A program made the position numbers and the translations under genes. DNA of 64,000 bases from Halichondria panicea (taxonomy: Eukaryota > Porifera > Demospongiae > Suberitida > Halichondriidae), in contig NC_087384.1 in NCBI RefSeq assembly GCF_963675165.1, positions 2,936,501 to 3,000,500 of the forward strand, given 5' to 3'. Shown here in pieces: positions 62 to 57,913 of this stretch. Position 1 is the first letter of the stretch. The number at the start of each line of letters is the position of its first letter. The notes beneath the pieces were generated by a model. That model was not told the DNA's origin. It saw only the letters and a list, made by a program, of their open reading frames with translations, and did not search any database.

Positions 62-874
62 TCATGGCTGCTGTATCATCTGTCCAAGCATTTGCATCAT
101 CTGTAGTTGATGTGCCTGTTCCTCCTTTCTTCTCACGTCTTCTAATTTTCTCTCTTTATCCCATCTTTCTTCCTCTCTTTTTTCAAATCTTTCCTCTGCT
201 TCTCTCTGGTAGCTTAAGAATGTCTCCGTCTGCCTCTCCATAGCCTTTTCTGTCTTGTTTTTTCTGGGGTTTTTTGTTTTAGGGGGAGCACCTGTGTGTG
301 TAGATTTTAAGTGCGTGCACTTGTATGTTTTCTATGAACTTACATTCATCTGTTTTCTCCTTTTCAGATGTACTGGCCTCTCCTTCAGTATTGGCCACAG
401 CACCGGCACTCTCCACTGGAAACTGTGGCTGAATTTGACTGCCATCTGTGTTAATAAATTTAAGATAAGTATCAAGTGTATCATTATAATTATTGTACCG
501 TCTGTATCCTCCACAATCTCATCCACCCTTTCCTCCATCTCAGAGCTTGTGTCAACGAGGAAAGATGGAGCGGAGGCTGGTCGGTGCCCCAGAATCCTAT
601 CCAGCTCGTCATAAAACTTACATGTTTTCCTCCTTTCCCCAGTCTTGTTATTGCTATCCTTTACTTTTTTGTAGTTTGTTTTTAAGTTTTTAATTTTTAT
701 CCTACATTGCGTCCAGTCTCTTTCATATTCCTTTTTCTTCATTTCTTGTGCTATTTTTTCGTAAATTACTTTATTTCTTACAGCTCCGTCCAGTTGCTGC
801 TGCAAGTCACTAGCTCCCCAGATAGCTATTAGTGCCTTCATTTCATTGTCACTCCAGTATGTGCCTCTGTTCAT
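62..874 (-). CDS. Myb/SANT-like protein of a PIF/Harbinger transposon, three exons, apparently intact
   Basis: I read three exons: 874-499, 445-344 and 291-62, with GT-AG introns of 53 and 52 bases, giving about 235 residues. The N-terminus (MNRGTYWSDNEMKALI, residues 1-90) has the spaced tryptophans and basic helices of a trihelix/Myb-SANT DNA-binding domain (YWSD, IWGA, DWTQCRIKIKNLKTNYKK). The middle is acidic and polar. The last exon encodes a highly charged coiled coil (EERFEKREEERWDKERK). In PIF/Harbinger elements such a protein accompanies the transposase and helps it bind the ends and enter the nucleus. A broken copy lies at 31.8 kb, and comparison of the two supports the splice sites. 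The matching transposase would lie left of this window. The start is the first ATG, shared by both copies. The stop lies where the other copy codes a Gln/Pro/Ser-rich tail, so the C-terminus may be slightly shortened. The family is clear; activity is inferred only from the open frame. Confidence 0.72.
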
Positions 875-904
875 TGTCTTCTCTTCTTATAGGACTTCTT
901 ATGC

Positions 905-6006: not shown

Positions 6007-6895
6007 TCCGACTAGAAAAACATTTGCCTTTAAAAAGCGTGGAAACAAGAAATTCGACGAGTGCATAACTCCAATCCGTTACAACACATGTAATAATTCC
6101 CGAAATGTATTAGGATGTTATTTTGTTACTTTATGTTATATATTATTTGCTTATTTGCTAGTATGTATACATGTATAGGGTAAGTTGAATGATTGGAATG
6201 TTTACATAGTATTACATAATCAATCATATTGAAACTTTGTGATACAAGGTATGTGTTTTAGTTTTGTTTTAGTTTTGTGATACCCCCCCTTTACAGTTTT
6301 GAGCAAAGACAGTGCCAAGTAAAGATAAAGAGCCAAAGATCTAGAGGAAAGACAGTCCCAATAGAAAGACAGTCCCAATAGAAAGAGCAAAGTCATTGAT
6401 GCATGAAGTATGACAATGATTTCATGACAGAACAATCTGGGGCTATACTAAGACAGTGCCAAGTATAAAGAGCCAAATAAAGACAAAGATCTAGACGAAA
6501 GACAGTCCCAATAGAAAGAGCAAAGAAAGAGCAAAGACAGTCCAGACAATGCATTGATGCATGAAGTATGATAATGATTTGATAACAGACTCAGGGCTAC
6601 TATATAGCTACTGGGCTATACTTTGACAGTGCGCACATGTGTATACTGTCAGTGTATAGACAACCTATACAATTAACAAACTATATGTGATAGCCAAAGA
6701 CTGTTCAATTTGCCACAACCAGAATTAATGATCCTATAATTGAAAGATTGTTAATCTGTCACTGCACTATTGTGATGCTATTTTTATTATGATACAAGTT
6801 ATCAGCACATGTTCATGACGTTGTAACGGATTGGAGTTATGCACTCGCCGAATTTTTTTAAAGGTGTAGCAATTTTTCACATTGCAAAAGTCGGA
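6007..6895. mobile_element. Long-TIR non-autonomous element (third relative of the module in the Helitron-like blocks)
   Basis: The left end TCCGACTAGAAAAACATTTG and the region around 6060-6090 (CATAACTCCAATCCGTTACA) are matched in reverse at 6816-6895 (TGTAACGGATTGGAGTTATG ... GTCGGA). The same arms bound the first part of the two 1.4 kb blocks at 8002 and 32836. The interior differs completely: it holds two diverged copies of about 145 bases (about 6300-6440 and 6447-6600), rich in AAAGACAGTCCCAATAGAAAGA, which also carry short internal duplications. No gene is visible. Confidence 0.6.
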
Positions 6896-7187
6896 TTCCC
6901 TTTCTCAGTAGTATTTAAATTTAATAGTGTATTATATAACTGAAAGAGTAACGTTCAACCCACCGTCTGTACTATAGGAATATAGGAATATTTGGATTAT
7001 AGCCATCTTGATAGAGTACTTCGAAGGTGAGTAGTCATTCAATATTTATGTAGACCACCTGTATACATAGACCACCTGTATACATGTGCACATGTGTGTG
7101 TGCGTACGCATATGTGAACATGGGAAAAGGTAAGAGGCGTTGACAACCTTTGAAGTTTGTATGTGAATGGGGAAAATTCGCGAGCAC

Positions 7188-7196
7188 TATATAAAG
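7188..7196 (+). promoter_or_regulatory. TATA box of the small spliced gene
   Basis: TATATAAAG lies about 25-30 bases upstream of a TTTTCATCTCAAC stretch (7211-7223) that could be the initiator. A 5' exon ending ATG|GTAAGT at 7241/7242 follows. The combination of box, spacing and donor suggests a real core promoter. Confidence 0.45.
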
Positions 7197-7296
7197 CAGT
7201 TCCCAATGCTGTTTTCATCTCAACAAAGCTTAATACGTATGGTAAGTGATTTTTTTTGATTGCTTTGCTTACCAGTTTGTATAACTGTGATACAGA

Positions 7297-7757
7297 ATGG
7301 CAACTCCTGAACAAACACCTCAGCGTCCAGCCCCCAGTCACTCCTCCAATCCCAAGGCCTGTCTCTCAGGGACAGTCACATGTGAGCCAGCATGTCACAC
7401 AACGGTTCACAAAGTACAGGTGACTCAAAGCAGGTGTGTCGTAGTGTGTCGTAATGAAGCATTGAAACATGATACCTGCCACTCTCTCCATCTCACTTTA
7501 ACTGACACTGAATTCTTTCCCAGTGGAGACAGATTCATATGAATCTAGTAGTAGTAGTGATGAAGACTACACTCCTGCTCCACAGCGTGGTAGAGGCAGG
7601 GGCCGTGGTGGGGGTGGTGCAGGTGCAGGCAGACGTGTCTACGTAAGTATTGAAGTTTTAATATTAATTAATAGTGTTGTTTGAACTTTGAACTTTCCAT
7701 AATTTCCTCCATCTGCAGATATTCAATGCACCAGTGACTATCAATCAGCATAAATAA
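7297..7757 (+). CDS. Small spliced gene, about 80 residues, RG/G-rich, unknown function
   Basis: A 5' untranslated exon appears to end at 7241 (ATG|GTAAGT), and the intron ends at 7295 (TACAG). Coding exons: 7297-7381 (donor T|GTGAGC), 7524-7642 (acceptor TTTCCCAG, donor TAC|GTAAGT) and 7719-7757 (acceptor CATCTGCAG, stop TAA). Phases agree, giving a Pro/Ser-rich start (MATPEQTPQRPAPSHSS), an acidic serine run (ETDSYESSSSSDEDYTPAP), an RGRGRGRGGGGAGAGRR segment and the tail VYIFNAPVTINQHK. RG/RGG tracts often bind RNA or DNA and acidic-serine runs are typical phosphorylation targets, but I recognise no family. It may be an accessory gene of a transposon, since only repeats surround it. The other frames of the exons are inferior. 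Confidence 0.45.
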
Positions 7758-7800
7758 TCAATCAGCATAAATAACTCTTGAACTCTTGAATGTATTATAA

Positions 7801-8000
7801 CAATCCTATGTAAAACCTACTGATAAAATGTGAATAAGATAATGTGAATTGTACAACAATGACTAGCCTCGGACCACCCAGATTAGTATTTCAATCGTCA
7901 TCACTAGCCTCCTTCACAAGGCAGTGAGGCCTGTAATAGAGGCTATCATAATTATTACATGCCTGTCTAAACATGCCTGTCTAAGTAAATTCTTAATCCA
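7801..8000. repeat. Partial copy of the 3' end of the Helitron-like block
   Basis: AATCCTATGTAAAACCTACT at about 7802-7821 repeats the sequence just before the terminal hairpin of the block ending at 9407 (and 34251), but then diverges. The rest of the interval shows only short direct repeats such as ACATGCCTGTCTAA, given twice near 7958-7985. Confidence 0.4.
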
Positions 8001-8572
8001 ATCCGACTAGAAAAACATTTGCAATGTGAAAAATTGCTAGAATTGGCCAGGGGAACCACAAAAAAGCGTGGGAACAAGAAATCAGACGAGAGCATAACTC
8101 CAATCCGTTACAACGTCAATCACATGTATACTGGTAGTTTTCCCATGTTTTCCCAGCCAATATGCCACGCAATTTTTACTGGTGGAGTGATGACCAATCC
8201 CTATATATATTTATTATACATCCATTTTAGAATGTGGGGCACATAATCATGATGATTTGTGATGAATTGATGTTCCTAATACATGCAGTGTTGAGCACAG
8301 GTACACACAGTCCATCCATGCGTAGTAACATGCACGGACCGTACTGGTGACTGCATGGAATGATGTGGTGGATGGAAGCTGATAGGTGGATCTGGAACAC
8401 AGTCTATTATTTAATATACTATGTATTGTACATGTTCATGACGTTGTAACGGATTGGAGTTATGCTCTCGTCTGATTTCTTGTTCCCACGCTTTTTTGTG
8501 GTTCCCCTGGCCAATCCTAGCAATTTTTCACATTGCAAATGTTTTTCTAGTCGGATTCCCTTTCTTTTTCAG

Positions 8573-8742
8573 TACAGTTTACGTATCATGACATGCATAA
8601 AGTGGAACGTCAAGAGGCAGTACAAGAAGAGAAGACAGGACTAATCAGATATCTTCTGGAATATCTCTGGGCTAATAATTATAGTAGAATGAGTAATAAT
8701 TTATTGCTTGATAATTATGTTGAATTTGCGAATCAGTATTAA
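8573..8742 (+). CDS. Exon-like open frame inside the Helitron-like block
   Basis: A strong acceptor (CCCTTTCTTTTTCAG ending at 8572) precedes an open frame to the stop TAA at 8740-8742. The peptide (about 56 residues) begins QFTYHDMHKVERQEAVQEEK and continues with an amphipathic stretch. No matching donor exon was identified. The second copy of the block has the same acceptor but a one-base loss (CATAAGTGG) and an altered middle that break the frame. It could be the captured last exon of a host or transposon gene. I recognise no family. Confidence 0.3.
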
Positions 8743-9111
8743 ATGACAGCCATTTTAAGAGCATGATATCTAGCCAGTGCATATAGCATGCCTGTCAGAG
8801 AAAGGGAGCTAGAGCTGAACAGTGTGAAGAAAAGGAACACCTCAGGCTCTGGAAAAGCACTGCTGCACTGATTTTAGGCGCACGGTTTATTAGCCACGCC
8901 TATCTATTATTATTGGCCACAACGCAATTGCTGAGTCATTAAAGATGGCGGAATTGTCTAGGTAAGAGAAATAGAGACTGAGAGGTCATCTGCCTCGTGG
9001 AAGCAATCGCAAATCTGAAGAAGCGCTTTGTAATCCAGGTTGTAGTCGTTTGGAAACCCTGTGCAGAATGTCCTGGAGATGGCTGTACTTGGAGTAAATG
9101 CTGGGCAAGAA

Positions 9112-9146
9112 ACTTACTTACTCACTTACTTACTTACTTACTTAGT
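9112..9146. repeat. (CTTA)n microsatellite
   Basis: A run of ACTTACTTACTC...ACTTACTTAG follows ATGCTGGGCAAGAA. The equivalent run in the second block (33949-33988) is longer, as expected of a slipping tetranucleotide repeat. Confidence 0.8.
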
Positions 9147-9731
9147 CAGTCAGACAAAGAGCGGTGAAACGTCGAAATAGTGCAATTTTTAAAATGAAAA
9201 TATTCATTCATTAAAATGTTTATGGATTATGAAATGAGAGATACAAAGAGAGAAAAGGCTAAATAAACTATCTGTTCAGCCAGTTTCTTGATGTGGCCTT
9301 TCCCTGCAGAGATAGAACAGTTTGAACATGAGTCAAAATAATTGAAATAATGCTAAACACGGGCAAACCCACTGCCAATCCTATGTAAAACCTACTGGTT
9401 TTACTAATAAATTTTTTGCCACAAACAGCTGCAAGTGGGAGAGCATTAAATCCAAATGAGCATTAAATAGAAGAAAATAATTATGAGTTAGTGTTTTGTT
9501 TTTAAAGGGTTCATTCGGCCGGTTTCCAAGACACCTTTGAGGTACGGCCTTCATCTCGTTTTTCGTTGTTTTCGAGGGATTCGTCTTTGTTATTGGGACA
9601 CTGCAGGTGATAAACACACACAGTAACATTGAATACTCACAATAGTCTTCACTCACCGTATTGACGCTGCCCAGTGTTTGTTTGTTAGCTCTAAGGTCTC
9701 TTGGACCAGTGTGCTCAGAGACACAAATGGA

Positions 9732-9954
9732 AGGAATACTTTTAGCCACACATTCAATGAACGGGCAGTAAACCGTTTGACATAAGTCTCCATGAACAAA
9801 CAACCAATGGGCAAGAATGCGTGTGAAACATTGAACAATTAAGTTCTACACTTAGAGTTTAAGTAATAACAGAAAGAAAAGGTGGTTACCCAGGAATACT
9901 TTTAGCCACACATTCAATGAACGGGCAGTAAACCGTTTGACGTAAGTCTCCATG
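9732..9954. repeat. 63-base direct repeat, two copies
   Basis: The sequence at 9732-9794 recurs at 9892-9954 with one difference, separated by about 97 bases. It lies just downstream of the OTU-type region on the minus strand, and the two copies read as similar peptides there, so it may be a duplicated 3' part of that gene. Confidence 0.7.
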
Positions 9955-9989
9955 TATAACAACAATAGGCAACCTACGCACAGAGTACG

Positions 9990-11690
9990 TGTGAAACACT
10001 TACTTTGTCACAACTTTGTAGTGGTCACCCGTGTGATAAATATACAAACCCCGAGGAGGGGGGATGTTGGGGTCTATTTTGCTCGGACAGTGACACAGCC
10101 AGGCATTTCCAGCCGTTCTCGAGTAGACGAACACCCTTCGCTCGAGCAGATGGGCCAGTGCAAAGATCTCCAAGTGAGTTCCCCAGATACGTGTTTGGTC
10201 CATTTGCGTGCCCCTGACGTAGGGTATCATGTCCGGGTAACCATCAACCAATGTTTACCATAAACAAGTGTTGAAAATCACACATGTGGGCTCGCCTGAC
10301 AGTAATGTGTTGAAGCCGGTAATGACCACAGACATTGCCCTGAACATGCACGCTCCATCCCGTCAACGAGCGAGGGTAAATGGAGCCGAGTCAGGGCAAT
10401 GTTTGGTCCGCCGGCGGTGACGATATTTCTGCGGTGATTAATTTTCAGCAGCAAACACGCCGATTTCTGTTCAACCTCGGGTTGAAGCAGAACGATTCAC
10501 TACCACGATTCTCTGGGTCTTCAACTATATGGCAATCACCAGCAGAGGTGACTGCCTCGTTTAGTTTCTTAACTGGGGGTTTGTCAACTTCAAGGTTACA
10601 TTGCCGTTTGGCTGGCGGGAAGACTGCAGGCGTCCTTTCCTTCCGTTTCTTAACTGGGGGTTTGTCGACATTACTCCCTCCAACCGTACACTGCCGTTTG
10701 ACAATCGCAGCTGTCATTTTCCTTTTTCTGTTTTGTTTAACGGGTACGCTGCCAAGTCTGGCCTGAATGCTAGCCTGAGCCTGTTACACTCCTCCACGCA
10801 CGCCATGATGGAGTCGGGTGTAAAGGTCTATGGACCTGACTCTGGACAACGCCATGCCCTCACCAAACACGCTGTCAGATAGGTCGATGATGGCTTGGCT
10901 CTTGTGTATGGTGACGGCATAAGCGACTATTAAAGGGAGTAGAATTTTTTCAGGACACAGAACCGGTTAGCGACTCTGGTCACTTCTGCCACACGTTAAC
11001 AGTCACGTGTTTAGATTCTATTTCAAGAACGGTGCTAGACCGTCTTCGGTGGACAGGTTTCGTCTCAACATGATGCGGGCCAGGTGGAGCACTTCTTCCA
11101 GACCAGCCGTCAAGCTGCTGTCTTTGTTCATTTCTGTCAGACGCTTTTCGGCCTGTTTGTTCCACTTTCCGTTGGCGCAGGCACCCTCGTCGATTACGTC
11201 TCTACAACGCAGTGGTATTATCTTACTGTCTAGAGTGTTCAGAGTTAACACGCTTTTCTAGTCGAGAAAAGCCATATGGGTTTTTTTACCCTCGCGTTTC
11301 AGTTGCTCGTACTTTTCTAGTACGGGTCTGTCAGGCCGCCTGTTCGCTAGGAAATCCCCTCCTGACGCTTTGAGTGTATAATTTGTCCCTTTCGTTGAAA
11401 GAGCAACATCAATACTAATGTGCCAGAAGTTTAGGTGGCCATCTCCCAAGAAGCAGACTGGTCGCGGGTAGATGCCAGCATACAGTCCAGAAGTACAGAA
11501 GGTTGGTGCTCCAACTGCCACTCCCTGGACGGTTGTCGACTCCCACAATCCCCCCTGCCAAACGAGGAGCACCGATGAGTAACGGTCCAATAATCTTCAA
11601 TCGGACGGTAGGTTTAGCCGGGAGAACACTCGGCAAGAAGACTGAACTCCTCCCCATTATATTAACCATGCAGTGTCGCAACAATATGAT
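9990..11690 (-). pseudogene. OTU-type cysteine protease region, broken
   Basis: Read on the minus strand, about 10360-10325 gives DGACMFRAMS, the catalytic-cysteine motif of OTU peptidases. About 10190-9995 gives WGTHLEIFALAHLLERRVFVYS ending GLYIYHTGDHYKVVTK (given here only in part), with the expected catalytic histidine in GDHY. Upstream, 10717-10445 encodes a basic segment with a repeated (V/L)xVDKPPVKK unit, and 11590-11018 encodes two overlapping frames of one longer protein without a known domain. A stop just before the cysteine motif and several frame changes mean it is broken or has introns I cannot place. OTU enzymes cleave ubiquitin. OTU domains are also known in some large transposons, including Helitron relatives, which is interesting beside the block ending at 9407, but that link is inference. 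Confidence 0.5.
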
Positions 11691-11699
11691 TTATCACCT

Positions 11700-12490
11700 A
11701 TGTATTTTGTGTGCTATTGTTACTTATAATTATTGGACGCATGCGCGTGGGAGGCAGAGCACGTATACTCGATGCGCTATTAGTATTGGTATAGAGGTTG
11801 ACAGCAGGCATGCGTGATATAATTAAAGGGGTTGACATTTTCTCTTAATCACAGATGTGGGGGGGGGGCGAGCAGTACCCGTACATGAAGCAACTGCAAG
11901 CCAATCACCTTGTTACCCAAACAAATTGTGTGTGTGAGGGTTGATGGTGCATCAGACGAGGGGCCTAGTCATCTTGAGGTTCAGTTTTGGTGGACAGAGT
12001 TTCATTTATCCCACAGCAACTTACATCACAGCAACTTACATCACATTACTCGTACTTAAATTGTGTAGAATGGCTGTCTATCCCAAGCTCATTCGAACAT
12101 TTTTATCCCTTCCACCATAAAGGGTAGCGAGCCACATTTCAACTTCTGATTTGGGACTGTTCATCTGTGGGATGGGCTCCATTCAAAAATTGCTGTATGC
12201 CGCAGGTACATCTAAGCCTGCATTTAATTCGTCTGCGTTTGGCTTTAGATATTTGCATGACATGGTCGACTGGCGCTTCAAAATGATAACAAGGTCGACC
12301 TCCTCCGATACGAAGTATTAAACGACGCTCAAACGTAATTTTTTTTTGCAAGCTTGCAAGCTATCATGGTCATGCCAGGCCTATTGTTACAAAACCACAT
12401 GCCCGTGAGCACCTTGCACGATTCAATCCATTCAATCCAGAAAGCTAGATGGAATAACAGATCAGAAGCTAAATAGGTTCAGCCATCTTC
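11700..12490. other. No gene recognised
   Basis: There are short random-looking frames, a G run at about 11862-11870 (GGGGGGGG) and a duplicated CAGCAACTTACATCACA at about 12016-12043. The minus-strand frame 12351-12139 is basic but without recognisable similarity. Confidence 0.4.
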
Positions 12491-12499
12491 CTCATCACT

Positions 12500-13920
12500 G
12501 AATATGGCAAGGGTGGAACTGAACTAAAAGAAAACACCCCAAAGCAAAACCTGCAAACCCAGAGGCCCTCATTCGGTAGTCTAACTGGTGAGGTTGTAAG
12601 GAAGACTGCACTAGCAGCTGCGGGTCCGAGATGCTTATATATGGAGACATATGGAGACGTATGATGGTATCAGCGGAGTGTGATTGAGGCACATAGCATC
12701 ACAGGAAGTGGACCCAGTCGGGCTTAGCTTGATCCCCCCCCTTTCGAAGAACCCTGGAGAGTACGACCAGTGGGAATAGGGGAAGTTTTGAGACGTATTA
12801 TTGGCAAGTCCCTGCTCAAGAGAGATATTACTGCAGGCCACCATGTGCAGGACATGCATGCCGTTTTGACGCAATCGTCTGAATCGTGCAGTGGCCCTCC
12901 ATAACATCCGATACACATGCCCACCTCTGGCAACAGTCCTCTTAAATTTCTACCAGTCACCGTCCAGACTATTTGTCTCAGGACTTCAGGAGGAATGGAA
13001 CTGTCCTCAGAAGAAGGTACCACCCAGGGATGTCCCCTGTCCATGGCGATGTATGCACTAAGCACTGTACCTTTAATAGACAAATGCAGGAGTGTGCTAT
13101 CCACGGATGATTCTCCCAGTGCAGTTCAAATATGGTACACCGATGACTGGGGGGAACCTGAAGATTTTACTACTGCAACATGGACCCGCGTATGGGTACT
13201 TCACAAAACTATCAAAAAAACGTTCCTCGTACTGAAACCAGAATGCCGCAGTTAAACAATTCGAAGGCACAGGCATCCAGATGTTTAGCGTCACCTGGGT
13301 GCAGCGATTGGGGATTGGGTCCCCAGCATTTGTTCCCCAGCATTTGTTGCCAGTTACACGTGGAACGGCTTGCTGACATTGCCTCCACCCAACCCACATG
13401 CAGCATCGATGGACATTTATTCAAAGAACCATGCCTACCGCGGGGGACCACATGCAACCACTGAAGGACGCTATTGATCACAAACTAATAGACACAGCTA
13501 CACTGCTATGTCGTTCAACGATCCTGTTAAGCACAGCAAAACTCACCCAGCGACCTCAATCAAAAGATGGCCGTGCGGGTGCGGCAACGTATTGTACAAA
13601 ATAAATCTACCTACCAGAACCCCTAGCACGTGGCTCAAGCACACCTAACACAATACCTGTTGCAGAGCACGGTTTGATGCTTTTCATGACTACATCAACC
13701 TTCGCTATTGTTGGCCACTGGAAAATTCAAGTTATACGGTAGACCATTCCCAGATCTCTGGCTTCATACACATGCGCCATGATGACACAACAAATCAGGT
13801 GGTAGGATGCAGTCTGGCCTTTTCATTGGCAAGATCAGCCATACGCAGAAGAGCCAGTCTCCAATGGACCTGATCCAAGCGGAGACACAGTTTGAGTGCA
13901 AATAGATACAACTCACAAAC
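12500..13920 (+). pseudogene. Non-LTR-type reverse transcriptase, degenerate
   Basis: Pieces in changing frames give the conserved RT blocks in order. PWRVRPVGIGEVLRRIIGKS is at about 12748-12810. The block with [19 protein letters not shown] is at about 13003-13060. The catalytic strand IWYTDDWG is at about 13128-13152, where the usual alanine of the YADD box is threonine. RWTFIQRTMPTAGDHMQPLK is at about 13404-13465. FHDYINLRYCWPL, which typically starts the C-terminal domain, is at about 13683-13722. At least four frame changes or stops separate these. The enzyme would copy element RNA at a nick in the target. A fragment of the C-terminal region of the same protein type lies at 52365-52710 on the other strand. 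I am sure of RT, less of the clade. Confidence 0.65.
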
Positions 13921-13924
13921 CTTT

Positions 13925-14600
13925 AGAACTTACATGTTTATTTTTTCTAACTGTCCTTCCACATTATAATTTTGAAAAAAAACAATATTGATGACTTCCG
14001 GGAACTACTAGATTTTCTGGAGAAGACAGATGAAGGCTAGGACTCTCTAGCTACGTAAGCTCTAATGTCTTGTTATAAGATTATCTGTGTAATGTGTCAG
14101 TCTTATAAAAGATCGCTCGATCCTACAGAAAGTGTCTCTGTCTTAAGCCTGAGTGATCTATTATAGGTAGTCCTTCACTTTTAGTATTCGTCCGTATTTG
14201 ATTCAACTTATTAGTAGAAGCTTTCCTCCTTTAATTTGGTACTGGTATCACTGCCATTGTGCTTAGTAGTAGCAGGCCTGATGGGATGGGTGATCACATC
14301 ATGGAGGGCCCAGGAAACTACGTGGAATTGTCGTATAACATTTATATTGATCTACGCCAAGCTAGCTAGCTAGCTAGATAGCTGCTCTTTCTAAATTATG
14401 TTTGTTAAAAAGTGGGGCTATAATATACCTGGCTCCTCTTGATGATTATGATTACTGCGCTGATGAAATAGTGAAATTTAATCTTTTATTTGTTACGGGA
14501 ATTTCCCCTTACGTAGACAATCATTGTAAAAAATGAACGTTCGGTGAGTTTCTTCAAAATTGTCGAGCAGCTACACGTACCTTACCTCACACATGTACTA
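13925..14600. other. No gene recognised; AT-rich
   Basis: Only short frames occur. A GCTAGCTAGCTAGCTAG run lies near 14361-14377. Confidence 0.4.
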
Positions 14601-14603
14601 ATG

Positions 14604-14730
14604 GACGTTAAACGGAGTTAACAACAGGGGAGTTGGTTGGAGGCAGGGGGCGGGGTTTGGCCAGACATGCACACTGCCAGGCATTAGGAACATGCGGTAA
14701 CACGCATGCGCATTGGTCAGTAACGGCATC
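14604..14730. repeat. Dispersed repeat shared with 28440-28525
   Basis: GTTGGTTGGAGGCAGGGGGC GGGG followed by TTTGGCCA and GCATGCGCATTGGTCAGTA occur here and, with a shorter middle, at about 28459-28516. Both copies are preceded by a GTTAAACGGA sequence. A frame at 14713-15003 begins in it (96 residues, no recognisable domain). Confidence 0.55.
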
Positions 14731-15215
14731 GTGCGCGGCATGTGCATACTGTGCTCGATAACTGTTGACATATCCAAAAGAATCCATGGGCTCTTCAACG
14801 GTCATAACAGACCCCATCGGGATCGGGAGCTGCAGACGTTGGTCACTAATGCTGTGGAGGCAGCAATAGTGACGGCCCAGTTGTGGCCTGCTAGACGGAT
14901 TGCTATCCCCACAACGGCAGGTGGGTACTCTTCTGGCAGTGAATGTGATCCTTTACTGTGCCAGTTCGTAGAAGCAATAGCAGGGGGCAGCAAGCTTACT
15001 TAGTATCATAGGTACAGGTCGGATACACCTTAAAAGCAACCTCAAAAGCAGGAGGGCAAAGGCAGTGTATTAGAGAAGCTTTGGGTGTATGTCAACAATT
15101 CGACCAACCAAGAGTCATAGAGGGCAAAGGTGCAAAGAGATGCATATGAAGGGTCAGACGACCAAACGGCAGAAGGCAAGGGTCATTTGACCAAGGAAAA
15201 GGCCAATGGCAGAAT

Positions 15216-16409
15216 CCTTTAAACTCCATGGGCCACGATCGTGGCCCGCAATTAGTGACTTTTTTTGCGAAATTCTAATTCTGCGATACTTAGGAAGTAG
15301 CTCGAACTACGCACATCCCTGTATAGAGGAAGAGCACGTGCAATTTAGTCTAGAAATTTCCAAGCCACGTTGCTACGTTAAAATTTCATTAGCATCTTAC
15401 CGCACGAAGTTTATAGCTATGGCTAGGTTGTTTACTTGTGCCGATGTGCTTGAACAGCTTGAGGACAGCGATGGCGATGTCTCCTCTGGTAATGACAGTG
15501 CCTATGAAGGAGAGGGGATAGTAGGATACCTCCCAAAGGTTACCAGCTTTATGCCAGACGCTGATGAACTGTCTGGGACTGGGACTGAGGAAATGCATGA
15601 CGCGCTATGGACCAGGAGAGGGCTCACTGTGTGACTCTGGTAAGTAGTATAGTATAGCTAGAATATCAGTAGTGTAAGTATAGTATAGCTAAAATAGAAT
15701 TAGCAGTAATGAACAGTCTTTATGTGAGCTTGTAAACTTCGTAGATCGTTCACCGAGCCCCACCTCTTCTCTGATGTCAACAGTACCAGGGTGTGGACCC
15801 GTCTGATGGAAGTGGGTCACTGTCCAACGATGACGGAGATGAACTTCCTGATGACAAAAGTGTGTCATTGGGTGATGGACTGTCCGGCGATGATGAAAGT
15901 TTGTTGATGTCTGACAGTGAAGCTGCTCTTTGCAGGCTATACTGAGATACCACTCACACTAGCTGTGCAGTTCTAAAGAGATACCTGGTGACAATAGGGC
16001 TGATGGTTATACATTGTATACCAGAGGCGATGGTACACCTTATCAAAACAACCAAAGGATACCCACGATGTACCTCTTGGGTGGTAATATAGTAATACAT
16101 CTACGTATTGTACTTCAAATTGATATAATTATCTTAGCACTGTTACATTCATATGATGTGAAAATCAAGCTTAGTCAAGCCTTTATACCATATGATAGGC
16201 TGATCCATAAAAAATTTTTTTTTGATGTTATCTCACCGCTGGCCGGGAATTTAAAATGATAAAAACGGGTGGGCGTAATTGCTATGGCAACACATGTTGC
16301 ACCATTTTATTCCTTGTTGTATGGGAAGTCTATTGGTATATGGTTGCTAGGCATTTTATTGCTCTGGAAACCCGATACAGACATAAGAATCCGACGGTTA
16401 AAGGGTTAA
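15216..16409 (+). mobile_element. piggyBac-like non-autonomous element, family 1, copy A (about 1.19 kb)
   Basis: The ends match the family: a degraded left end then the palindrome GGGCCACGATCGTGGCCC (15229-15246), and a right end CCGACGGTTAAAGGG followed by TTAA (16406-16409). It retains what looks like the first exon of a transposase (15419-15633, MARLFTCADVLEQLEDSDGD, then SAYEGEG) and a second acidic segment (about 15800-15930, SDGSGSLSNDDGDELPDDKS) around GTAAGT-type donors. Acidic, serine-rich N-termini are typical of piggyBac transposases. No catalytic domain remains. Copies B-D are at 29814, 50779 and 62562. Confidence 0.65.
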
Positions 16410-18780
16410 GGTCATACGACCAAGGGCGGTTTATGGCATGGCAGAAATCAGGGCGGGTATTTGTGTATGTCAACCAAGGTCAAAGCAAGTGAGTTGTAGG
16501 GATACCCAGGGTCTAACCTGGCTATTGTATTGTTGTACACTCTTTCGGGTTAATGGTAAGCTCGTCGTACACTGCTGTGCTTTTCCAAATATTTGCGGAC
16601 CCTATGCAACCTATTCTGAGCGATAGCACTTTAGTGGGAACGCTTTAGAACACCGGTGCACCGTTAACGGGTGGTAGCTGGAGGATGTCGCCCACAGTCA
16701 TTGTGTGAAGCGAAGTCGTGCAAGCACATGGAGGACAGTTAGTGAACATCTATCAGGCTAGGGGCGTACAGGTCAGTTTAAGAGCTGAGTGTAGTTTTTG
16801 AGCTTTCTATTGCGTTTGTACGGTATCGTTTGACTTCTCGTTAAAGTGGTCACCTGTAACATGGTCGTACCCTGCCCTAATTCTCGGGTTTTAAAGGTAC
16901 TTAAAGCAAACACCCACAACCTCTTGTAGAGAGTAGTGCTCGTGCTAGACAGGCTAGACAGTTCCGCAAACGTGGCGCTCGCTTTTGTGACATACGCCGT
17001 AATGTAACCGCCATGCCTATGTACCAAAGGTGCAGCAGCAAGGGATTGTAATCGTTGATTCTGGCTTCTTGGCCGTTTCTGGGAAGATCGTACACTCTCG
17101 CCTAGTATTGGGAGAACGGTCCAGCTACCAGGTCCAGCTACCATTTTCATGACACGAATATAGCTCGCCAGAGATTTTGGACTTCCTTAAGCTACTCGGC
17201 GACTACGATCCCGGCTCAAAAGTAAAGTATTCATGGACAGCAGTAGCCACAGACACAGGCCTCAGACACCTATTGTTAGTTACGCAAAGAATTAAAATCG
17301 TTACTGATGATAAAAAAATGTTTTCAAGGCTCGAAGAACGAAAGGAGAGGCTACGATAATTATTTTTATAATTACACTCTAAACATTAATGTTGGTGTAG
17401 TCAACACACATAATACGGCTCACCTCGCTGCTTGCTATTCTTTTAGCTACAATAATAGCTAGCATTGTTTCATGTTCTCTTTTCATTGATAATCATTGCT
17501 AGTTACAAAAATAATATGCTTGCTTGCTATTCTTCTGTTAACTGTACATAGCCACCTCTGATTATTGGATCCAGATTATTGGATCCAGCAACACCTACAT
17601 GTAGTGTACATACGTACACAAAAAAGGCTAATCAATGCTTCTTGTACAGTCAGTACCAGACCATACCATACAGCTTCTAGAGATTGTACTAAGGCACCGG
17701 TTGTATTAATTTGACAGCCTAATTTTAAGTCTATAATAGGTGATGCAGGCCCTAAAGAAGACTCTAAACATTCATTATACCACACTTATGTCACTACTAA
17801 TTGGTCAACAGCTGTAGAATAATTATTATCATACAGCCCCAAGCTTTCCATCACTGACAGAAAGTAGAATCTACTCTTGCTGTACTGCAAGAGTAGAAAG
17901 CAGAATCCTGGTGTAATTTCCTGGTGTAATTACTTCACTGCCTGTTCGCTCCAGAGGTAGGCCACCTTATATGGCAATCAGAACTAAAGGAGGTAGAGTT
18001 GTTAATATTCATGTTGTTCGTGCAAACTGCTGAAAAGAAAAAGTGAAAAGAAAAAGATGCCTCGGTCAATCAATATATCGACGAGTCGACGGTTGGGTAC
18101 TACAGGACGGCCTAGAGGAGAATGTATAAAGAGTGTCAAATTAACCTATCCTGATATTAAGCTCCTGATATTAAGCTCTGTATAACCATGGCGAGCGTGC
18201 GCTCTCGCCATGTTATGCTTAGTGTTATAGTTATAATTATGTTTATAATTATGTGGACCAATAAAAATAGTATCTATATATAATTATTGTGGGATGATTC
18301 AGGATCTTGGGAGGGAGGGCAGCAATTCGGATGCCCCCCCTTTTGAAAAACTACCAGGTTACAACAATTTTGCCCACCAACCTTGTTACTTATGGTTACT
18401 TATGCATCTGAATGTAGACCAGTGTTCGCCGTAGTAAATCAAGCTTGTCTTGACTGGTATATGCTAGATATTGCATGCTCTTTGCCAATCTATTTAAAGG
18501 AAAGGGGCAGGGCGGCTCGAAACAATTTCTTCAAAACAATGAACAGTCATCGAGTTAGCACAGTCATCGAGTTAGCTCGTGTAGAAGTCCGACTAGCTAG
18601 TAAACTATGGCATTTTTCTTCAGTTTGTAGATGCCCTCAGGAATATCGCTGGTACTGATCATAGTAGGTCACTGTTCAGTTCGTCTTTTTTCTTCATCTA
18701 ATACTAAAATCGGCAGTGACCACACGATCTTTGTGGTAAATTTTTTGCCACCTAGTTAGCGTACTAATAGGCATTGACAG
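16410..18780. other. No gene recognised; dispersed and tandem repeats
   Basis: Frames are short. Noted repeats: AGCTAGCATTGTTTCATG with its continuation at about 17456-17498, which recurs at about 21543-21582; AAGGGGCAGGGCGGCTCGAA at about 18501-18520, recurring in near form at 21234-21253; exact adjacent duplications at 17560-17587 (14 bases twice) and 18149-18176 (14 bases twice). A hairpin CATGGCGAG...CTCGCCATG lies near 18188-18211. Confidence 0.4.
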
Positions 18781-32835: not shown

Positions 32836-34251
32836 TCCGACTAGAAAAACATTTGCAATGTGAAAAATTGCTAGGATTGGCCAGGGGAACCACAAAAAAG
32901 CGTGGGAACAAGAAATCAGACGAGAGCATAACTCCAATCCGTTACAACGTCAATCACATGTATACTGGTAGTTTTCCCATGTTTTCCCAGCCAATATGCC
33001 ACGCAATTTTTACTGGTGGAGTGATGACCAATCCCTATATATATTTATTATACATCCATTTTAGAATGTGGGGCACATAATCATGATGATTTGTGATGAA
33101 TTGATGTTCCTAATACATGCAGTGTTGAGCACAGGTACACACAGTCCATCCATACGTAGTAACATGCACGGACCGTACTGGTGACTGCATGGAATGATAA
33201 AGTGGTGGATGGAAGCTGATAGGTGGATCTGGAACACAGTCTATTATTTAATATACTATGTATTGTACATGTTCATGACGTTGTAACGGATTGGAGTTAT
33301 GCTCTCGTCTGATTTCTTGTTCCCACGCTTTTTTGTGGTTCCCCTGGCCAATCCTAGCAATTTTTCACATTGCAAATGTTTTTCTAGTCGGATTCCCTTT
33401 CTTTTTCAGTACAGTTTATGTATCATGACATGCATAAGTGGAACGTCAAGAGGCAGTACAAGAAGAGAAGACAGGACTAATCAGATATCTTCTGGAATAC
33501 TGGACTAATAATTATAGTATAATGAGTAATAATTTATTGCTTGATAATTATGTTGAATTTGCTAATCAGTATTAAATGACAGCCATTTTAAGAGCATGAT
33601 ATCTAGCCAGTGCATATAGCATGCCTGTCAGAGAAAGGGAGCTAGAGCTGAACAGTGTGAAGAAAAGGAACACCTCAGGCTCTGGAAAAGCACTGCTGCT
33701 GCACTGATTTTAGGCGCACGGTTTATTAGCCACGCCTATCTATTATTATTGGCCACAACACAATTGCTGAGTCATTAAAGATGGCGGAATTGTCTAGGTA
33801 AGAGAAATAGAGACTGAGAGGTCATCTGCCTCGTGGAAGCAATCGCAAATCTGAAGAAGCGCTTTGTAATCCAGGTTGTAGTCGTTTGGAAACCCTGTGC
33901 AGAATGTCCTGGAGATGGCTGTACTTGGAGTAAATGCTGGGCAAGAAACTTACTTACTTACTCACTTACTTACTTACTTACTTACTTAGTCAGTCAGACA
34001 AAGAGCGGTGAAACGTCGAAATAGTGCAATTTTTAAAATGAAAATATTCATTCATTAAAATGTTTATGGATTATGAAATGAGAGATACAAAGAGAGAAAA
34101 GGCTAAATAAACTATCTGTTCAGCCAGTTTCTTGATGTGGCCTTTCCCTGCAGAGATAGAACAGTTTGAACATGAGTCAAAATAATTGAAATATTGCTAA
34201 ACACAGGCATACCCACTGCCAATCCTATGTAAAACCTACTGGTTTTACTAA
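32836..34251 (+). mobile_element. Helitron-like non-autonomous element, copy 2 (1416 bp)
   Basis: Nearly identical to 8002-9407, with small indels only (for example GATAAAGTGG for GATGTGG, and a longer CTTA run). It begins TC after A at 32835 and ends CTAA (34248-34251) before T, with the AAAACC-TACT-GGTTTT hairpin at 34231-34246. It sits between the Myb-like gene and the transposase of the Harbinger element and cuts the last codons of the transposase. The inverted module is at 32836-32952 and 33276-33392. Confidence 0.6.
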
Positions 34252-34253
34252 TT

Positions 34254-35090
34254 GTGCAAAACACAACAAGCGCTTCATTAAACATCTCCATCGAGCTTTT
34301 AGACGACCATAGGCATGCTCAACAGCGGCGGTAGTTAAACGTCTTCTGTTGAGGGGTGAGACTTCCTGTGTCGGGGTAAGCTTTCATGAGCCACTTCAAA
34401 AGAGGGTACGCTGGATCACCTAAAATGACGAGAGGAATTTCATGCTGCCCAATCGTCTCTGTCGAATTGGGTAAAAGTGATCCTTCTTGTCCTTTTTTAA
34501 ATAGAGAAGAGACTCTTGCGTCGTGGACTCGTCCTGGCCAGCCGACATAAATGTCCATGAAAAGACCATTGTGATCAACCAATCCTTGGAGTATGATGGA
34601 ATGCCAACCTTTCCTGTTGCTGTTGTAGTAGTCGGCTGGGCACTCTTGTGGTGAGATGATCTGGCCGTCAATTGCTCCAACACACTGTGGAAAACCCAGT
34701 TTGCCAGCCACCACTTGCTTCAATGCATCACCACAAGGCATATGAATATACCTGGGAAGAAGATGGTCCACAATGCACACACATACGTCTTTCGTTATTA
34801 GGCAAACTGATGCTTTTGAGACACGGCTAATTGTCCTAAAATCCGAGTTTGTTGAGAGAATCGATAGAGACCTTTTTCTGGAGTGGGATGGCTTTCCTCA
34901 TAGAGGTATTGCTTTTCTCAATGGACTTTAACTCTTGGCAGACAAATGGAACGTATCTCGGCTCATTCTGAAATTTTGAATCCAGTCTCGATGGGTAAAT
35001 GTTTCCATTACGACCCGCTCCCACCACTGAGAACTTCTTTCTCTTGTCCAGATAGTTCTTGGTGTGGCATTGTGACAGCAAACAGTAAAC
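34254..35090 (-). pseudogene. PIF/Harbinger transposase (DDE_4, HARBI1-like), frameshifted and 3' truncated
   Basis: The minus frame 34780-34319 carries the catalytic core: FPQCVGAIDGQIIS with the first aspartate, GLFMDIYVGWPGRVHDARV with the second, and LVILGDPAYPLLKWLMKAYP. The glutamate region VEHAYGRLKARWRCLMKR is readable at about 34318-34264 after a one-base shift. The N-terminal part (ELKSIEKSNTSMRKAI) lies at 35081-34836 and joins the core through a frame change near 34860. The gene stops at 34252, exactly where the Helitron-like block ends. The enzyme would excise and insert the element with three-base target duplications, together with the divergent Myb-like partner at 31.8 kb. It is dead in this copy. 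Confidence 0.8.
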
Positions 35091-45879: not shown

Positions 45880-46800
45880 TTGGCTAAGATAGACATCAGA
45901 CAGGCTTACCATAATGTGCCCATACACCCAGAGAGTGAACTGGAAAGAGACGATCAACGTATTAACATTCGGGATGCGGTCAGCTCCTTCACACGGCGAC
46001 AGACGCACTGCAATGGGGCCGGAGCACTATTCCACTAGACGCGCTAGGCCAACCTCGCAACAATCAGGCAGAAAGAAGACAAGTCCGTAGGCCCAACAAC
46101 CATTCCTTGGTATTGAATTGGACTCGGTGGGTCTGCCTCCCAGTAGAAAGATAGATACTGAAAACATGGAGGGGGGTGGGGTCGCAAAGCCGGTAAAAAA
46201 AGAGAATTGCTGTCTCTGATCGGATCACTCCAGCTTGCGTCAAAAGCAGTTTGCCAAGGAAGGAGCTTCCTTCGCAGGCTGATTGATTTGTCCATGGCCA
46301 GGAAAGGTTTAAACAAATCAGCCCTTCGCTGGTGGTGCGAATTTATGTTATGCTATGTAGGTTCGGCAGATTGAACCCTACTATCCTACTATCTGGGTCA
46401 CTTCAGACGCATCAGGCTGTAGGCTGTGGGGCATATGGGGAAGAAGCAATTTCAATGGCCGCTCACATCACCATCAAGGAATTGATCCCCGTTGTCTTTG
46501 CAGCAGGAATTCAGTACGATTTGCAATCCTCAGATCAGGGATGAGTAAAGATGAACTCATTATGCGGCATTTATCACAGCTCGTTTTAACTTTGTAGTCT
46601 CCGCTGATGTGGAGCAGATGCACTTTCAAGGGACAATGCTATCCTATTTCATTCTCTCCACCCACAGGCTCTACCCCAGGCAACCCCTGCATTAGTGGAG
46701 CTGCTCTTGCTAACCAAACCATAGATAGTGTAGTAAGAGGGATTGGAAACGGACCGCGATTGTCGGCCAGTCTAGGCTGCGCAGGAAGTTAATTCACTGC
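45880..46800 (+). pseudogene. DIRS-type RT and RNase H, degenerate
   Basis: Beginning at about 45885, KIDIRQAYHNVPIHPE is the first aspartate region of RT. About 46190-46310 reads GKKRELLSLIGSLQLASKAV, then GRSFLRRLIDLSMARKG and WWCEF, the connection to RNase H in DIRS/Ngaro pol. About 46395-46530 carries the RNase H start (VTSDASG in one frame; AAHITIKELIPVVFAA in the next), and about 46590-46625 reads ARFNFVVSADVEQMHF. The YxDD strand is missing, and at least four frame changes or deletions are present. The recombinase of such an element is not adjacent; a separate remnant is at 26.9 kb. Confidence 0.6.
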
Positions 46801-48324
46801 ACCGGAAGCTAATAATAGTTTCTTCACCTTGGGATGGCAGCACAGATTACAGAGCAGACAGACAGCACATGAGACCTTGATAAGAGCTAGAGCTAAAGAG
46901 CAGTGATGAGCATCGAAGGTATAAGTCCAAAATACCAGTCTACATTTGTATAGCTAGCTTGCTTGTCCATTTTAATATTTGTCCCTTTTAATACAGAGAA
47001 CCTTTTAATACAGAGAAACACTCTACTGAGGTCGAGAGAAGCCACTAAGCCTCTGTTTGTGAAGACGAAGGATTCAAGATATTTAGCAGTGCCAGCATCA
47101 TGTAACTGCACTGACTTTGAGCAACAAAGTTGTAGCTATGATTAGCTATGAATGGATGATTTACAAAGGAAATACAATTTAATAGCTATCACTTTAGCGT
47201 ATTGTGTATTCACACTCTTATACTCTTTAATAGTGTATATAGTTGATTCGATTTATAATTATAATTATGGTTGTTTGATCACACGTAAAAAAAATAATTA
47301 TGTGCTTATGTGCATCAAATAGAAATGTAGTTAAACACTTCGAGAGGGTTCTAGCCGATTTGCTCACTCAGAAAGGCACTTGCATCAGGGAGGATGAACA
47401 GGTCTCCTACCATGTCAATGAATGATTTGACTGCAAAGGGGCGAGGGGAGTTTTAGGTTTACAATACACACTGTATATATACGTACCTGACTCAGACTGT
47501 GAACTTCAGTCCTTGTGGCATCACTACAGCATCTTGTTGCAGCCAGTGCACTTAGCTCCTTACGGCTAGAAACCGATTTTTCCCAGTGTCCCAGTCGTCC
47601 AGGTATTCATTCTCCAACCCTATAGTATAATATATATCACCTATGGGCAAGTAAACAAGACGGTAGTAACATAATAAGTAGTAAAATAATAACGTATGAC
47701 TAGTATATACATGTACATACGTCAATTTGTAATTATACATGTAGACTAAACATCACAGCTACTGCCAAAATAAGGCTTTGTTCAGTCAAATGAAGGTGTC
47801 TATTGCACAATATACAGCACTCACTATAATATAATATAAAGGCATTTAGAAATACTCACGACAAATTATATGCCAAAGAGAGGTACGGAAAAGTGGACAT
47901 AAATTTAGGTCAATTTGTCATTTTATCACCATGTTGTGAACTTTTCTTAGTACTTAGCAGGGCCAACTCAACACCATTTCATTCCTTACCTAATTCTCTA
48001 TCAACAACATCATCAATCTTTAATATTGCTTGTATAACAAAAAGATATAGGTACAGAAAGTCATTCCAGTTTGAAAATGCCGCCAATTTCTGATATAGGA
48101 CTGGTAAATAAGGTCCCAATAAATAATGAGGCTCTTAGTTTTAGTGCTTACCTTTGTCCTAGAACAGGAGAAAACCTTGTCTTTGTATCTCTGGACGGGC
48201 GTGATTTAGCGCTTATAGCTGTGTTATGCGCAGCCTGGATTGTCCACAAGGCCCCAAGTTCATTACATTGCATTGATAAGCCCACGTGATCCCGTTTCCA
48301 ATCCCTCTTACTACACTATCTATG
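46720..48324. repeat. 33-base perfect inverted repeat, 1.6 kb apart
   Basis: CATAGATAGTGTAGTAAGAG and 13 further bases (46720-46752) are exactly reversed at 48292-48324. A related sequence in the same reversed direction is at about 61092-61122. The pair could be the ends of an element of about 1.6 kb inserted in or beside the DIRS-type remnant, but I see no target duplication and no transposase between. The interior holds only short frames (for example 46963-47145 and 48071-48289). Confidence 0.45.
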
Positions 48325-55336: not shown

Positions 55337-55834
55337 TCATTTTGAAGATGGGGGATTTAGCGCACGGCTTAGTAAACCAGCTCTTCTCAACCTCATAAAC
55401 ACTTCCGAGAGGTGCTTGAGGTGATCCTCGAATGTATCGGACACTACAAGGATGTCATCCAAATAGACAAAACAGCTCGTTCCTTCCAGTCCAGCCAGTA
55501 TGGCCTGCATTAGTCGCTGAAAGGTCGCTGGGGCATTACAAAGTCCAAATGGCATTCTTGTGAATTCAAACAATCCTCGATGAGTCGTGAATGCAGACTT
55601 CTCGCGTGCCTCTTGGTCCAACTCTACTTGCCAATATCCTGAGGCGAGGTCTAAGGAAGAGAAATACTTGGCACCTCCTGCTGCGTCCAAAATATCATCA
55701 ATCCGGGGTAGAGGGTATACATCTCGTCTAGTGACAGCATTCAATCGGCGATAGTCGACACAAAACCTCTTGCTACCGTCCTTCTTGGGAACTATTACAA
55801 CGGGGCTGGCCCATGGGCTCATAGAGGGTTGCAC
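55337..55834 (-). pseudogene. Ty3/Gypsy reverse transcriptase, 3' truncated
   Basis: An open minus frame of 165 residues contains the RT palm and fingers: SPWASPVVIVPKKDGSKRFC, VDYRRLNAVTRRDVYPLPRI, FSSLDLASGYWQVEL with the first catalytic aspartate, RMPFGLCNAPATFQRLM and the active-site FVYLDDILV. It ends soon after, in the thumb, so RNase H and integrase are missing. The frame continues upstream in another register (56144-55884). The only lesions seen are the truncation and a frame change near 55850. Confidence 0.85.
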
Positions 55835-55883
55835 TACACCTTGCTTGCTCCTCCATCTCTTCTACCATTCGACTGATCGTTTC

Positions 55884-56527
55884 TCAGTGGATAAATGGGG
55901 TGCGATAGGGTTGTTGCTTTACTGGGTGGCTATCTCCGGTATCAATGCAATGGCGCACTACATTGGTGCAACCTAACTCGGCACCATTAAGGGCAAATAC
56001 ATCAGAGTAATCATAAAGCAATTGGGTAAGCTGAATTTGCTGTCCTTCCGAAAGGATCATGGAATCAATACCTAAGACAGTCTTAATTTGGTTCATACGT
56101 TCGGAGGTCTTAACAACGGTGTCTACAGATCTACAGATGCACATGTAGTATTAGTACAACAAACATCTCCGGGTTTCAAAACAGGCACAACGTCCAAAGG
56201 TTGTACACACCCTATCTCCATGCCCTCCAAAAGTTGAGTCGAGGCACCATGCACATTCACCATTGGGACTAGCATACAACCATCATCGTCAATAGTAATA
56301 AGGGACTCTTGGGAATACAAACCCTTAGGCTCAAGCTGACCATTACTTGGTTCAAACAAAACAGAACCTCCAGGTAGGGCATGTACATTGTCGATTTTGA
56401 CTCTCACAAAACTGCCTTTCAAGCTGGGTACTATAACACCTTTCACTAACCGCACAAACCGCACAATAGATATTTCAGGGTCAGGGTTACTTCTTGCTAT
56501 GAGGGATTGTCCATTAGGTCTCAACAA
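55884..56527 (-). pseudogene. Ty3/Gypsy protease-RT linker
   Basis: Two minus frames (56527-56123 and 56144-55884) connect protease to RT. They read RFVRLVKGVIVPSLKGSFVR and later LTQLLYDYSDVFALNGAELG, then HCIDTGDSHPVKQQPYRTP, the conserved lead-in to RT. A small duplication (CTACAGAT twice near 56121-56139) lies at the frame change. Confidence 0.7.
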
Positions 56528-57474: not shown

Positions 57475-57913
57475 ACGTTCAAACTCTCGGCCTTGGACGC
57501 TTTGCGCCCTAGTGCTTGAAGCTCCAATCCTAGATCTTCTATCGACTCATCTCTCTGGACTTTATGATGGAACTCCATGTCTCTAAGTTCTTCAATATCG
57601 ACAGCCTTGAAGCGGGCTCGTAAGGCATCAACTACCTTCTCGTACTGACTCTGGTCCGTGTCTGGGAGAGCACGGAGAACTCTCAGAGCCGTTTTCTCCA
57701 ATAACAATTTAATCTGATGTAACTTTTGCTCAGTACTCCATCCGGCAACTTTAGCTCGTTCTTCAAACTGTTCAATCCAACGCGCTCGAATCCATCTTCT
57801 TCCATTTGTTTCCCTTCATCGGTAAAGGCCTTTAGGGGTGGTAGGTGCTGGGCAGCTGTAGCTTGTGTTTGGGCAGCAATTGCCTCTGTGTGAGCTTCCA
57901 AAAGCCTTGTCAT
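57468..57913 (-). pseudogene. Ty3/Gypsy gag capsid part, frameshifted
   Basis: Two overlapping minus frames (57913-57683 and 57707-57468) contain KLLLEKTALRVLRALPDTDQ-like sequence and HKVQRDESIEDLGLELQALG, typical of the capsid of Ty3/Gypsy gag (retrotrans_gag-like). One frame change separates them. Confidence 0.6.

What the first reader, a model, noticed from the sequence alone, without database searches (positions are those of the whole stretch)
8002..9407. Pair of 1.41 kb blocks with Helitron-type ends (TC...hairpin-CTAA between A and T)
Two almost identical blocks (8002-9407 and 32836-34251) have unrelated flanks. Both are preceded by A, start TC, end CTAA and are followed by T, with a perfect six-base hairpin AAAACC-TACT-GGTTTT just before CTAA. 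That is the Helitron pattern, yet the one-base spacing and the inverted-repeat left part are atypical. It may be an undescribed non-autonomous Helitron-like family. A fragment of the same 3' end lies at 7802-7821.
Basis: partly seen in the sequence, partly recalled or inferred. Interest (0 to 1): 0.75.

Follow-up and report, generated by a model that had tools for sequence, protein, structure and literature searches.

The report
Helitron family with a backwards transposase
The two matching blocks are recent copies of a short jumping DNA of the Helitron kind; the larger relative that carries the jumping enzyme holds its gene backwards and starts with a doubled, mirror-image end, a layout that I found described only for Helitrons with other kinds of ends.

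Summary
Both 1.41-kb blocks belong to a high-copy family (40 scored copies at 97-100% identity; 348 hits to the 3' end, 0 in the control) with ends A|TC...hairpin-CTAA|T. At 42 junctions the base before is A in 41 and the base after is T in 42. Empty sites for three insertions show no duplication or loss at the junction. The hairpin is 8 bp, not 6. The left inverted repeat is two facing copies of the TC end.

The likely autonomous partner is in the genome: a 10.4-kb element with the same ends and Rep, PIF1-helicase and OTU domains, all encoded against the TC-to-CTAA direction. A relative on C1 (RepHel DNA 81% identical) with diverged ends has the same layout, and block 1 itself lies inside an old decayed copy. 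Reversed RepHel genes are reported for Helitron2/Helentron elements; in the papers searched I found none with TC/CTRR ends and A|T targets. The layout works like bacterial IS91/ISCR. New variant of a known kind.

The parts
8002..9407 (+). Non-autonomous Helitron copy 1, A|TC...CTAA|T
   Evidence: empty site seen in four related sequences
8002..8128 (+). Outer TC-end arm (left terminal sequence) of copy 1
   Evidence: 96.9% to the inner arm over 127 positions
8429..8555 (-). Inner, inverted TC-end arm of copy 1; its outer boundary also reads A|TCCGAC on the minus strand
9385..9404 (+). 3' hairpin GTAAAACC-TACT-GGTTTTAC; CTAA is 9404-9407
32836..34251 (+). Non-autonomous Helitron copy 2, A|TC...CTAA|T
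32836..32962 (+). Outer TC-end arm of copy 2
33266..33392 (-). Inner, inverted TC-end arm of copy 2
34229..34248 (+). 3' hairpin of copy 2; CTAA is 34248-34251
6007..17226 (+). Old, decayed copy of the RepHel-bearing relative, TC end at 6007 (preceded by A); interrupted by copy 1 and by other DNA at about 11393-16540; its 3' end was not found
   Evidence: blocks 75.7% (6027-7970) and 79.3% (9403-11392) to the C13 element
6007..6085 (+). Outer TC-end arm of the old copy (with a deletion)
6807..6896 (-). Inner arm of the old copy (with a deletion)
7801..7822 (+).
9408..11392 (-). Helicase/OTU-side region of the old copy
   Evidence: C13 3746-6158
16541..17111 (-). Helicase and Rep remnants of the old copy; 66-77% protein identity to the L022 Rep fragment, with a stop codon

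Best explanation
The blocks are members of a non-autonomous Helitron family with canonical ends (A|TC ... hairpin-CTAA|T), derived from a larger element by loss of its middle. The larger element (C13:3164577-3174944, 10,368 bp, and relatives) makes a Rep/PIF1-helicase protein with HUH and two-tyrosine motifs. Inferred by analogy with Helraiser: Rep nicks at the TC end, the strand is peeled off towards the hairpin, the hairpin and CTAA stop the transfer, the strand is circularised and joined between A and T of a new site. Shown here: ends, target, empty sites, recent spread, and a RepHel gene that in all seven informative loci lies antisense to TC-to-CTAA, so that the presumed origin lies downstream of the gene and the presumed terminator upstream, as in IS91/ISCR. 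Also shown: the TC end is doubled as a long inverted repeat whose arms changed together in three lineages. Inferred: the arms are kept alike by foldback of the single strand and conversion.
For: Ends and target: 41 of 42 junctions A before, 42 of 42 T after; 38 of 41 non-autonomous copies start TC, three lack that T. Empty sites: block 1 against four relatives, L001 against 39 repeat copies in the listing with two aligned, L003 against one. Recent: 22 copies (high scorers) differ by 0.54% on average, gaps left out. Shared ends with RepHel: 25 of 25 bases of the 5' end and 23 of 23 of the 3' end at C13; element 891-1406 is 82.7% and 1-127 89.9% to it. Domains: PF14214 9.4e-27, PIF1, Pif1_2B, OTU. 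Motifs HUH, YxxxY, Walker A and helicase VI found in C13 and C1; all in one frame in C1, in three frames in C13. C1 relative (C1:9036309-9044891, 8,583 bp): A|TC...CTAA|T, hairpin with one paired change A-T to C-G. dN/dS C13-C1 0.36, 0.40 and 0.19 over 272, 268 and 549 codons. Orientation antisense: L022, L039/L040, L043/L090, L041/L066 with both ends, L044, L097 and the window copy with one end.
Against: Strand transfer itself was not observed. The hairpin touches or overlaps CTAA instead of lying 10-12 bases inside. The C13 copy has a 13-base direct repeat flanking it (none of 50 shuffles gave 13), and 6-base shared words near junctions are commoner than in shuffles (6 against 2.5), so a minor duplication effect is not excluded. 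The C13 gene is split over three reading frames (introns or damage not settled). The seven antisense loci are relatives, hence one inherited layout, not seven independent cases. No OTU hit was found in the C1 protein scanned.
Confidence: 0.82

Rival explanations
1. The blocks are moved in trans by another, sense-orientation Helitron, and the antisense RepHel is only cargo picked up by one element.
For: Helitrons often carry captured genes (recalled); the C13 gene may be damaged; the genome assembly has gaps or withheld stretches.
Against: The antisense gene stayed under purifying selection between the C13 and C1 lineages, which share the layout. Of the PF14214 loci (21 matches) I read DNA around those on 15 of the 21 lines; the loci outside this family (L021, L045, L046, L093, L094, L095, L096) showed no family ends beside their Rep; L095 and L096 held only 264 and 59 bases of weak similarity. 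The five loci not read match the Helentron-type Rep at 66-87%; four more loci found only were not read.
Confidence: 0.1
2. The family is a Helitron2/Helentron with unusual ends, for which a reversed RepHel is already described.
For: Reversed RepHel genes are reported there (PMC3627910, PMC4067079, PMC5148889, passages); OTU domains occur with Helentrons (PMC4067079, passage); DINE-1 has an inverted repeat at its 5' end (PMC4067079, passage).
Against: Target is A|T, ends are TC and CTAA; no asymmetric terminal inverted repeat above shuffles (win1 182, C13 94, C1 183 of 200 shuffles reach the observed length); no endonuclease hit in the proteins scanned, whereas the Helentron-type L021 protein has one; Rep only 26-39% identical to L021.
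Confidence: 0.12
3. A cut-and-paste or foldback transposon with the long inverted repeat as its ends and a TA duplication.
For: TA stands on both sides in 18 of 42 junctions; the 127-nt arms look like terminal inverted repeats.
Against: The inner arm lies 850 bp inside the element; TA on both sides is absent in 24 of 42; empty sites show a single A|T.
Confidence: 0.02
4. The two blocks are a segmental duplication.
For: Near identity; one other pair of copies on C9 shares flanks.
Against: Unrelated flanks and A/T boundaries in 22 copies.
Confidence: 0.01

Closest known systems
Helitron1 (canonical Helitrons; Helraiser/Helibat1)
   Same: TC and CTRR ends, A|T target, no duplication, 3' hairpin, Rep HUH plus two tyrosines plus PIF1-type helicase
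   Different: RepHel antisense to TC-to-CTAA; hairpin overlaps or nearly touches CTAA; TC end doubled as a 127-nt inverted repeat; OTU domain on the helicase side in the C13 copy
Helitron2/Helentron with reversed RepHel (Helitron-2_CRe, Helitron-1_DR, Helentron-Da-40, FoHeli4/5)
   Same: Reversed RepHel; Helentron-Da-40 also has an inverted repeat at its 5' end (PMC4067079, passages)
   Different: T-rich or TT targets, asymmetric terminal inverted repeats, endonuclease in Helentrons; none of these found here
IS91/ISCR rolling-circle insertion sequences
   Same: Origin downstream of the transposase gene, terminator region upstream with its promoter (PMC13393415, PMC6218425, passages)
   Different: Bacterial, no fused helicase, different ends and targets (recalled)

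Membership tests
Helitron1 | 5' TC and 3' CTRR ends | tested here: met
   38 of 41 non-autonomous copies and both autonomous copies start TC; 40 of 41 and both end CTAA
Helitron1 | insertion between A and T without target duplication | tested here: met
   41 and 42 of 42; empty sites. Exception: 13-base repeat around the C13 copy
Helitron1 | hairpin about 10-12 bases from the 3' end | tested here: inconclusive
   8-bp hairpin present and kept by one paired change in C1, but 3 bases from the end here, 6 in the fold of C1
Helitron1 | Rep (HUH, two tyrosines) fused to PIF1-type helicase | tested here: met
   fusion in one frame seen in C1 only
Helitron1 | RepHel in the same direction as TC-to-CTRR | tested here: not met
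   antisense in 7 of 7 informative loci; 2 more loci uninformative, 1 not examined
Helitron1 | RepHel falls in the Helitron1 clade | not testable with these tools
   only Helraiser was available as reference (E 3.4e-6 for the Rep)
Helitron2/Helentron | asymmetric terminal inverted repeats | tested here: not met
Helitron2/Helentron | insertion at TT or T-rich sites | tested here: not met
   A before in 41 of 42
Helentron | endonuclease domain fused to RepHel | tested here: not met
   no hit in four ORFs scanned; hit in L021 as control. The C13 gene parts between ORFs were not scanned
IS91/ISCR | transposase gene antisense to origin-to-terminator | tested here: met
   layout met if TC is the origin, which is inferred from Helraiser; membership not claimed

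The most novel reading that the evidence does not exclude
A third Helitron layout: canonical TC/CTAA ends with an IS91-like reversed gene order and a functional double origin, in which two facing TC ends are needed for transposition and are kept identical by folding of the single-stranded intermediate.
Probability: 0.3. Interest if true: 0.65.

Novelty: new variant of a known kind. Interest (0 to 1): 0.5.

Why it matters
Gene direction relative to strand transfer decides what a Helitron can lose or pick up: with the origin behind the gene, read-through past the hairpin would carry off DNA upstream of the transposase promoter, as in ISCR elements. A young family with canonical ends, an identified candidate enzyme and a doubled origin would let one test whether gene order matters and what the long foldback at the TC end does.

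Tried and rejected
One-ended copies. On contig C1 I fetched the 11 exact 5'-arm hits that lacked a partner arm (L036, L098-L107). Five are only about 92-133 nt of TC end followed by other DNA, which looked like transfer that starts at TC and stops early. Joined flanks gave no empty site in a capped listing, and in 2 of the 5 the right flank begins exactly at the break with another repeat (a third within 12 bases), so insertion of other repeats explains them at least as well. Dropped.

Transfer from the inner TC arm. L042 seemed to be a copy that started at the inner arm and ran through RepHel. Its left edge is an ordinary A|T insertion into a RepHel copy and its right edge is another repeat-like end. 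Dropped.

A stand-alone palindromic element. Ten arm pairs on C1-C3 without an exact 3' end (L024-L033) proved to extend into the element body. L107 ends with the palindrome, a single case.

Self-insertion origin of the reversed gene (model of PMC5148889): possible, but no remnant of inner ends was identified; not tested further.

Ends of the Helentron-type family (L021): searched, not established.

Full report
Observation. The two blocks are as described. They are 98% identical over 1420 columns. A search with block 1 scored 40 of 1075 first-look candidates and returned 40 near-full copies at 97-100% identity on many contigs; block 2 was not among them, so this is a lower bound. The 28-base 3' end has 348 hits at up to three mismatches and none in the control, the 28-base 5' end 659 and none. 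On contig C1, 24 of 32 exact 3' ends have a 5' arm within 2.5 kb upstream; of the other eight, L110, L111 and L112 are nearly full with a diverged 5' end, L023 is a 5-kb copy with an insert, L113 is split by an insert, and L108, L109 and L114 are partial as far as seen.

Ends and target. I read both ends of 41 non-autonomous copies (the 40 and block 2) and of two RepHel elements. One copy (C1:8781415) lacks its 3' end and was dropped, leaving 42 junctions. The base before is A in 41, the base after T in 42; upstream the sites favour TATA. 38 of 41 non-autonomous copies start with TC; in L005, L047 and L057 the T is replaced; the one non-A is L005 counted that way. Two copies on C9 share flanks and are one insertion. 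Abutting repeats are absent or one base in 22 of 42, TA in 18 and four bases in 2; the longest shared word within 20 bases is like shuffled pairs except for more 6-mers (6 against 2.5) and one 13-mer at the C13 element.

Empty sites. Block 1 sits in an older RepHel element, so four relatives show the site without it: in L042, L043 and L044 the flanks join at A|T with no gain or loss; in C13 four extra bases lie close to the left of the junction. Joined flanks of L001 matched 39 places and of L003 one place across the junction; the alignments made (two for L001, one for L003) are exact at A|T.

Structure. The 3' hairpin is an 8-bp stem, GTAAAACC-TACT-GGTTTTAC, followed by TAA. In the C1 relative it reads GTACAACC-TACT-GGTTGTAT, which keeps pairing by one A-T to C-G change and one G-T pair, and the end is still CTAA|T. 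The left part is an inverted repeat with 127-nt arms and a 300-base loop in the blocks, about 740 bases in C13. The inner arm, read on the other strand, also begins A|TCCGAC.

The RepHel elements. PF14214 gave 21 matches. The C13 element, C13:3164577-3174944, has exactly the block's first 25 and last 23 bases. Its three longest open frames, 644, 686 and 665 aa, lie on the strand opposite to TC-to-CTAA; one 245-aa frame on the other strand overlaps the helicase frame. The 686-aa frame matches Helitron_like_N (9.4e-27), the 665-aa frame PIF1, Pif1_2B and OTU; the 644-aa frame has no Pfam hit. The Rep is related to Helraiser (3.4e-6) and keeps HYH and YxxxY. The C1 element, C1:9036309-9044891, begins A|TCAAAACTAAAAAAC and ends CTAA|T on the minus strand, with Rep and helicase on the plus strand; RepHel DNA is 80.7% identical to C13 over 5053 columns, the 3' end region 68.6%. 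dN/dS between the two is 0.36, 0.40 and 0.19.

Orientation. Ten loci carry a Rep fragment at least 55% identical to that of L022. In seven at least one end could be placed: L022, L039/L040, L043/L090 and L041/L066 (both ends), L044, L097 and the window copy (one end). RepHel is antisense in all seven. L042 and L092 were uninformative and C9:3146434 was not read. L022 is a 9.25-kb element inserted in another copy, exact on the CTAA side, with ten target bases missing and the first base changed on the TC side. L043 has lost part of its hairpin. These are relatives, so the layout is one inherited state, older than the C13-C1 split.

Doubled TC end. Arms within an element are 96.9 and 97.6% (blocks), 98.4% (C13) and 96.7% (C1) identical, whereas arms of C13 and C1 are 82.8-86.8% and arms of the blocks and C1 79.3-82.8% identical. 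So the arms changed together in these lineages. Against it: among close relatives the pattern is weaker (L022 95.2%, L043 92.9% within, both nearer to C13 than to their own partner), and in the decayed window copy 77.2%; the identical arms of 19 of 20 block copies say little because the copies are young. I infer foldback and conversion in a single-stranded intermediate; a role in transposition is possible and untested.

Second family. L021 and relatives encode OTU, Rep, PIF1 helicase and an endonuclease, which fits Helentron. Their Rep is 26-39% identical to this family, and no family ends were found at the three such loci first fetched or at L094.

Mechanism. From Helraiser work (PMC5876387, passages): nicking at TC, hairpin as terminator, circles with joined ends, A|T integration. 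If that holds here, the origin lies downstream of the gene and the terminator upstream, the order of ISCR, where terIS holds the transposase promoter and oriIS is the downstream side (PMC13393415, PMC6218425, passages).

Known or new. Reversed RepHel is reported in Helitron2 and Helentron elements (PMC3627910, PMC4067079, PMC5148889, passages), with self-insertion proposed as the origin (PMC5148889). Searches for the same in TC/CTRR elements and for long inverted repeats in Helitrons listed no such case; I saw listings and passages, the library lacks most subscription papers, and Repbase was not available.

Noticed in passing
C13:3164577-3174944 (L039/L040), flanks: The C13 RepHel element is flanked by a 13-base direct repeat (three bases off on the left). 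It could be a duplication or a pre-existing tandem repeat; no empty site was found.
   Followed up: partly
L039 3517-3548; window 7801-7822; L042 2647; L043 8335; L044 2585: RepHel copies carry an internal copy of the 3' end about 2 kb from the TC end; in C13 it runs to CTAA|T and so could act as an early stop.
   Followed up: partly
L014 and L015, 3' side: Two copies have a second partial 3' end in tandem right after the first (70 and 22 nt).
   Followed up: no
L025 2274, L069, L028 160, L023 5062; window 46718-46753, 48283-48324, 61088-61125: A shared motif (CATAGAT...GGGATTGGAAAC) stands at breaks of several truncated copies; two copies break at the same base of the hairpin. Probably the end of another mobile element.
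   Followed up: partly
L036, L098, L101, L104, L106: Units with only about 92-133 nt of the TC end followed by other DNA; L101 and L106 break at the same place.
   Followed up: partly
window 34322-34897 (-): Fragment of a DDE_Tnp_4 (Harbinger-type) transposase close to block 2; a Myb/SANT-like frame lies at 335-886 (-).
   Followed up: no
window 55340-57546 (-): Retrotransposon remains: reverse transcriptase and aspartyl protease domains.
   Followed up: no
C1:13256000-13265999 (L021): A Helentron-type element with a 1707-aa open frame (Rep, helicase, OTU, endonuclease); ends not found.
   Followed up: partly
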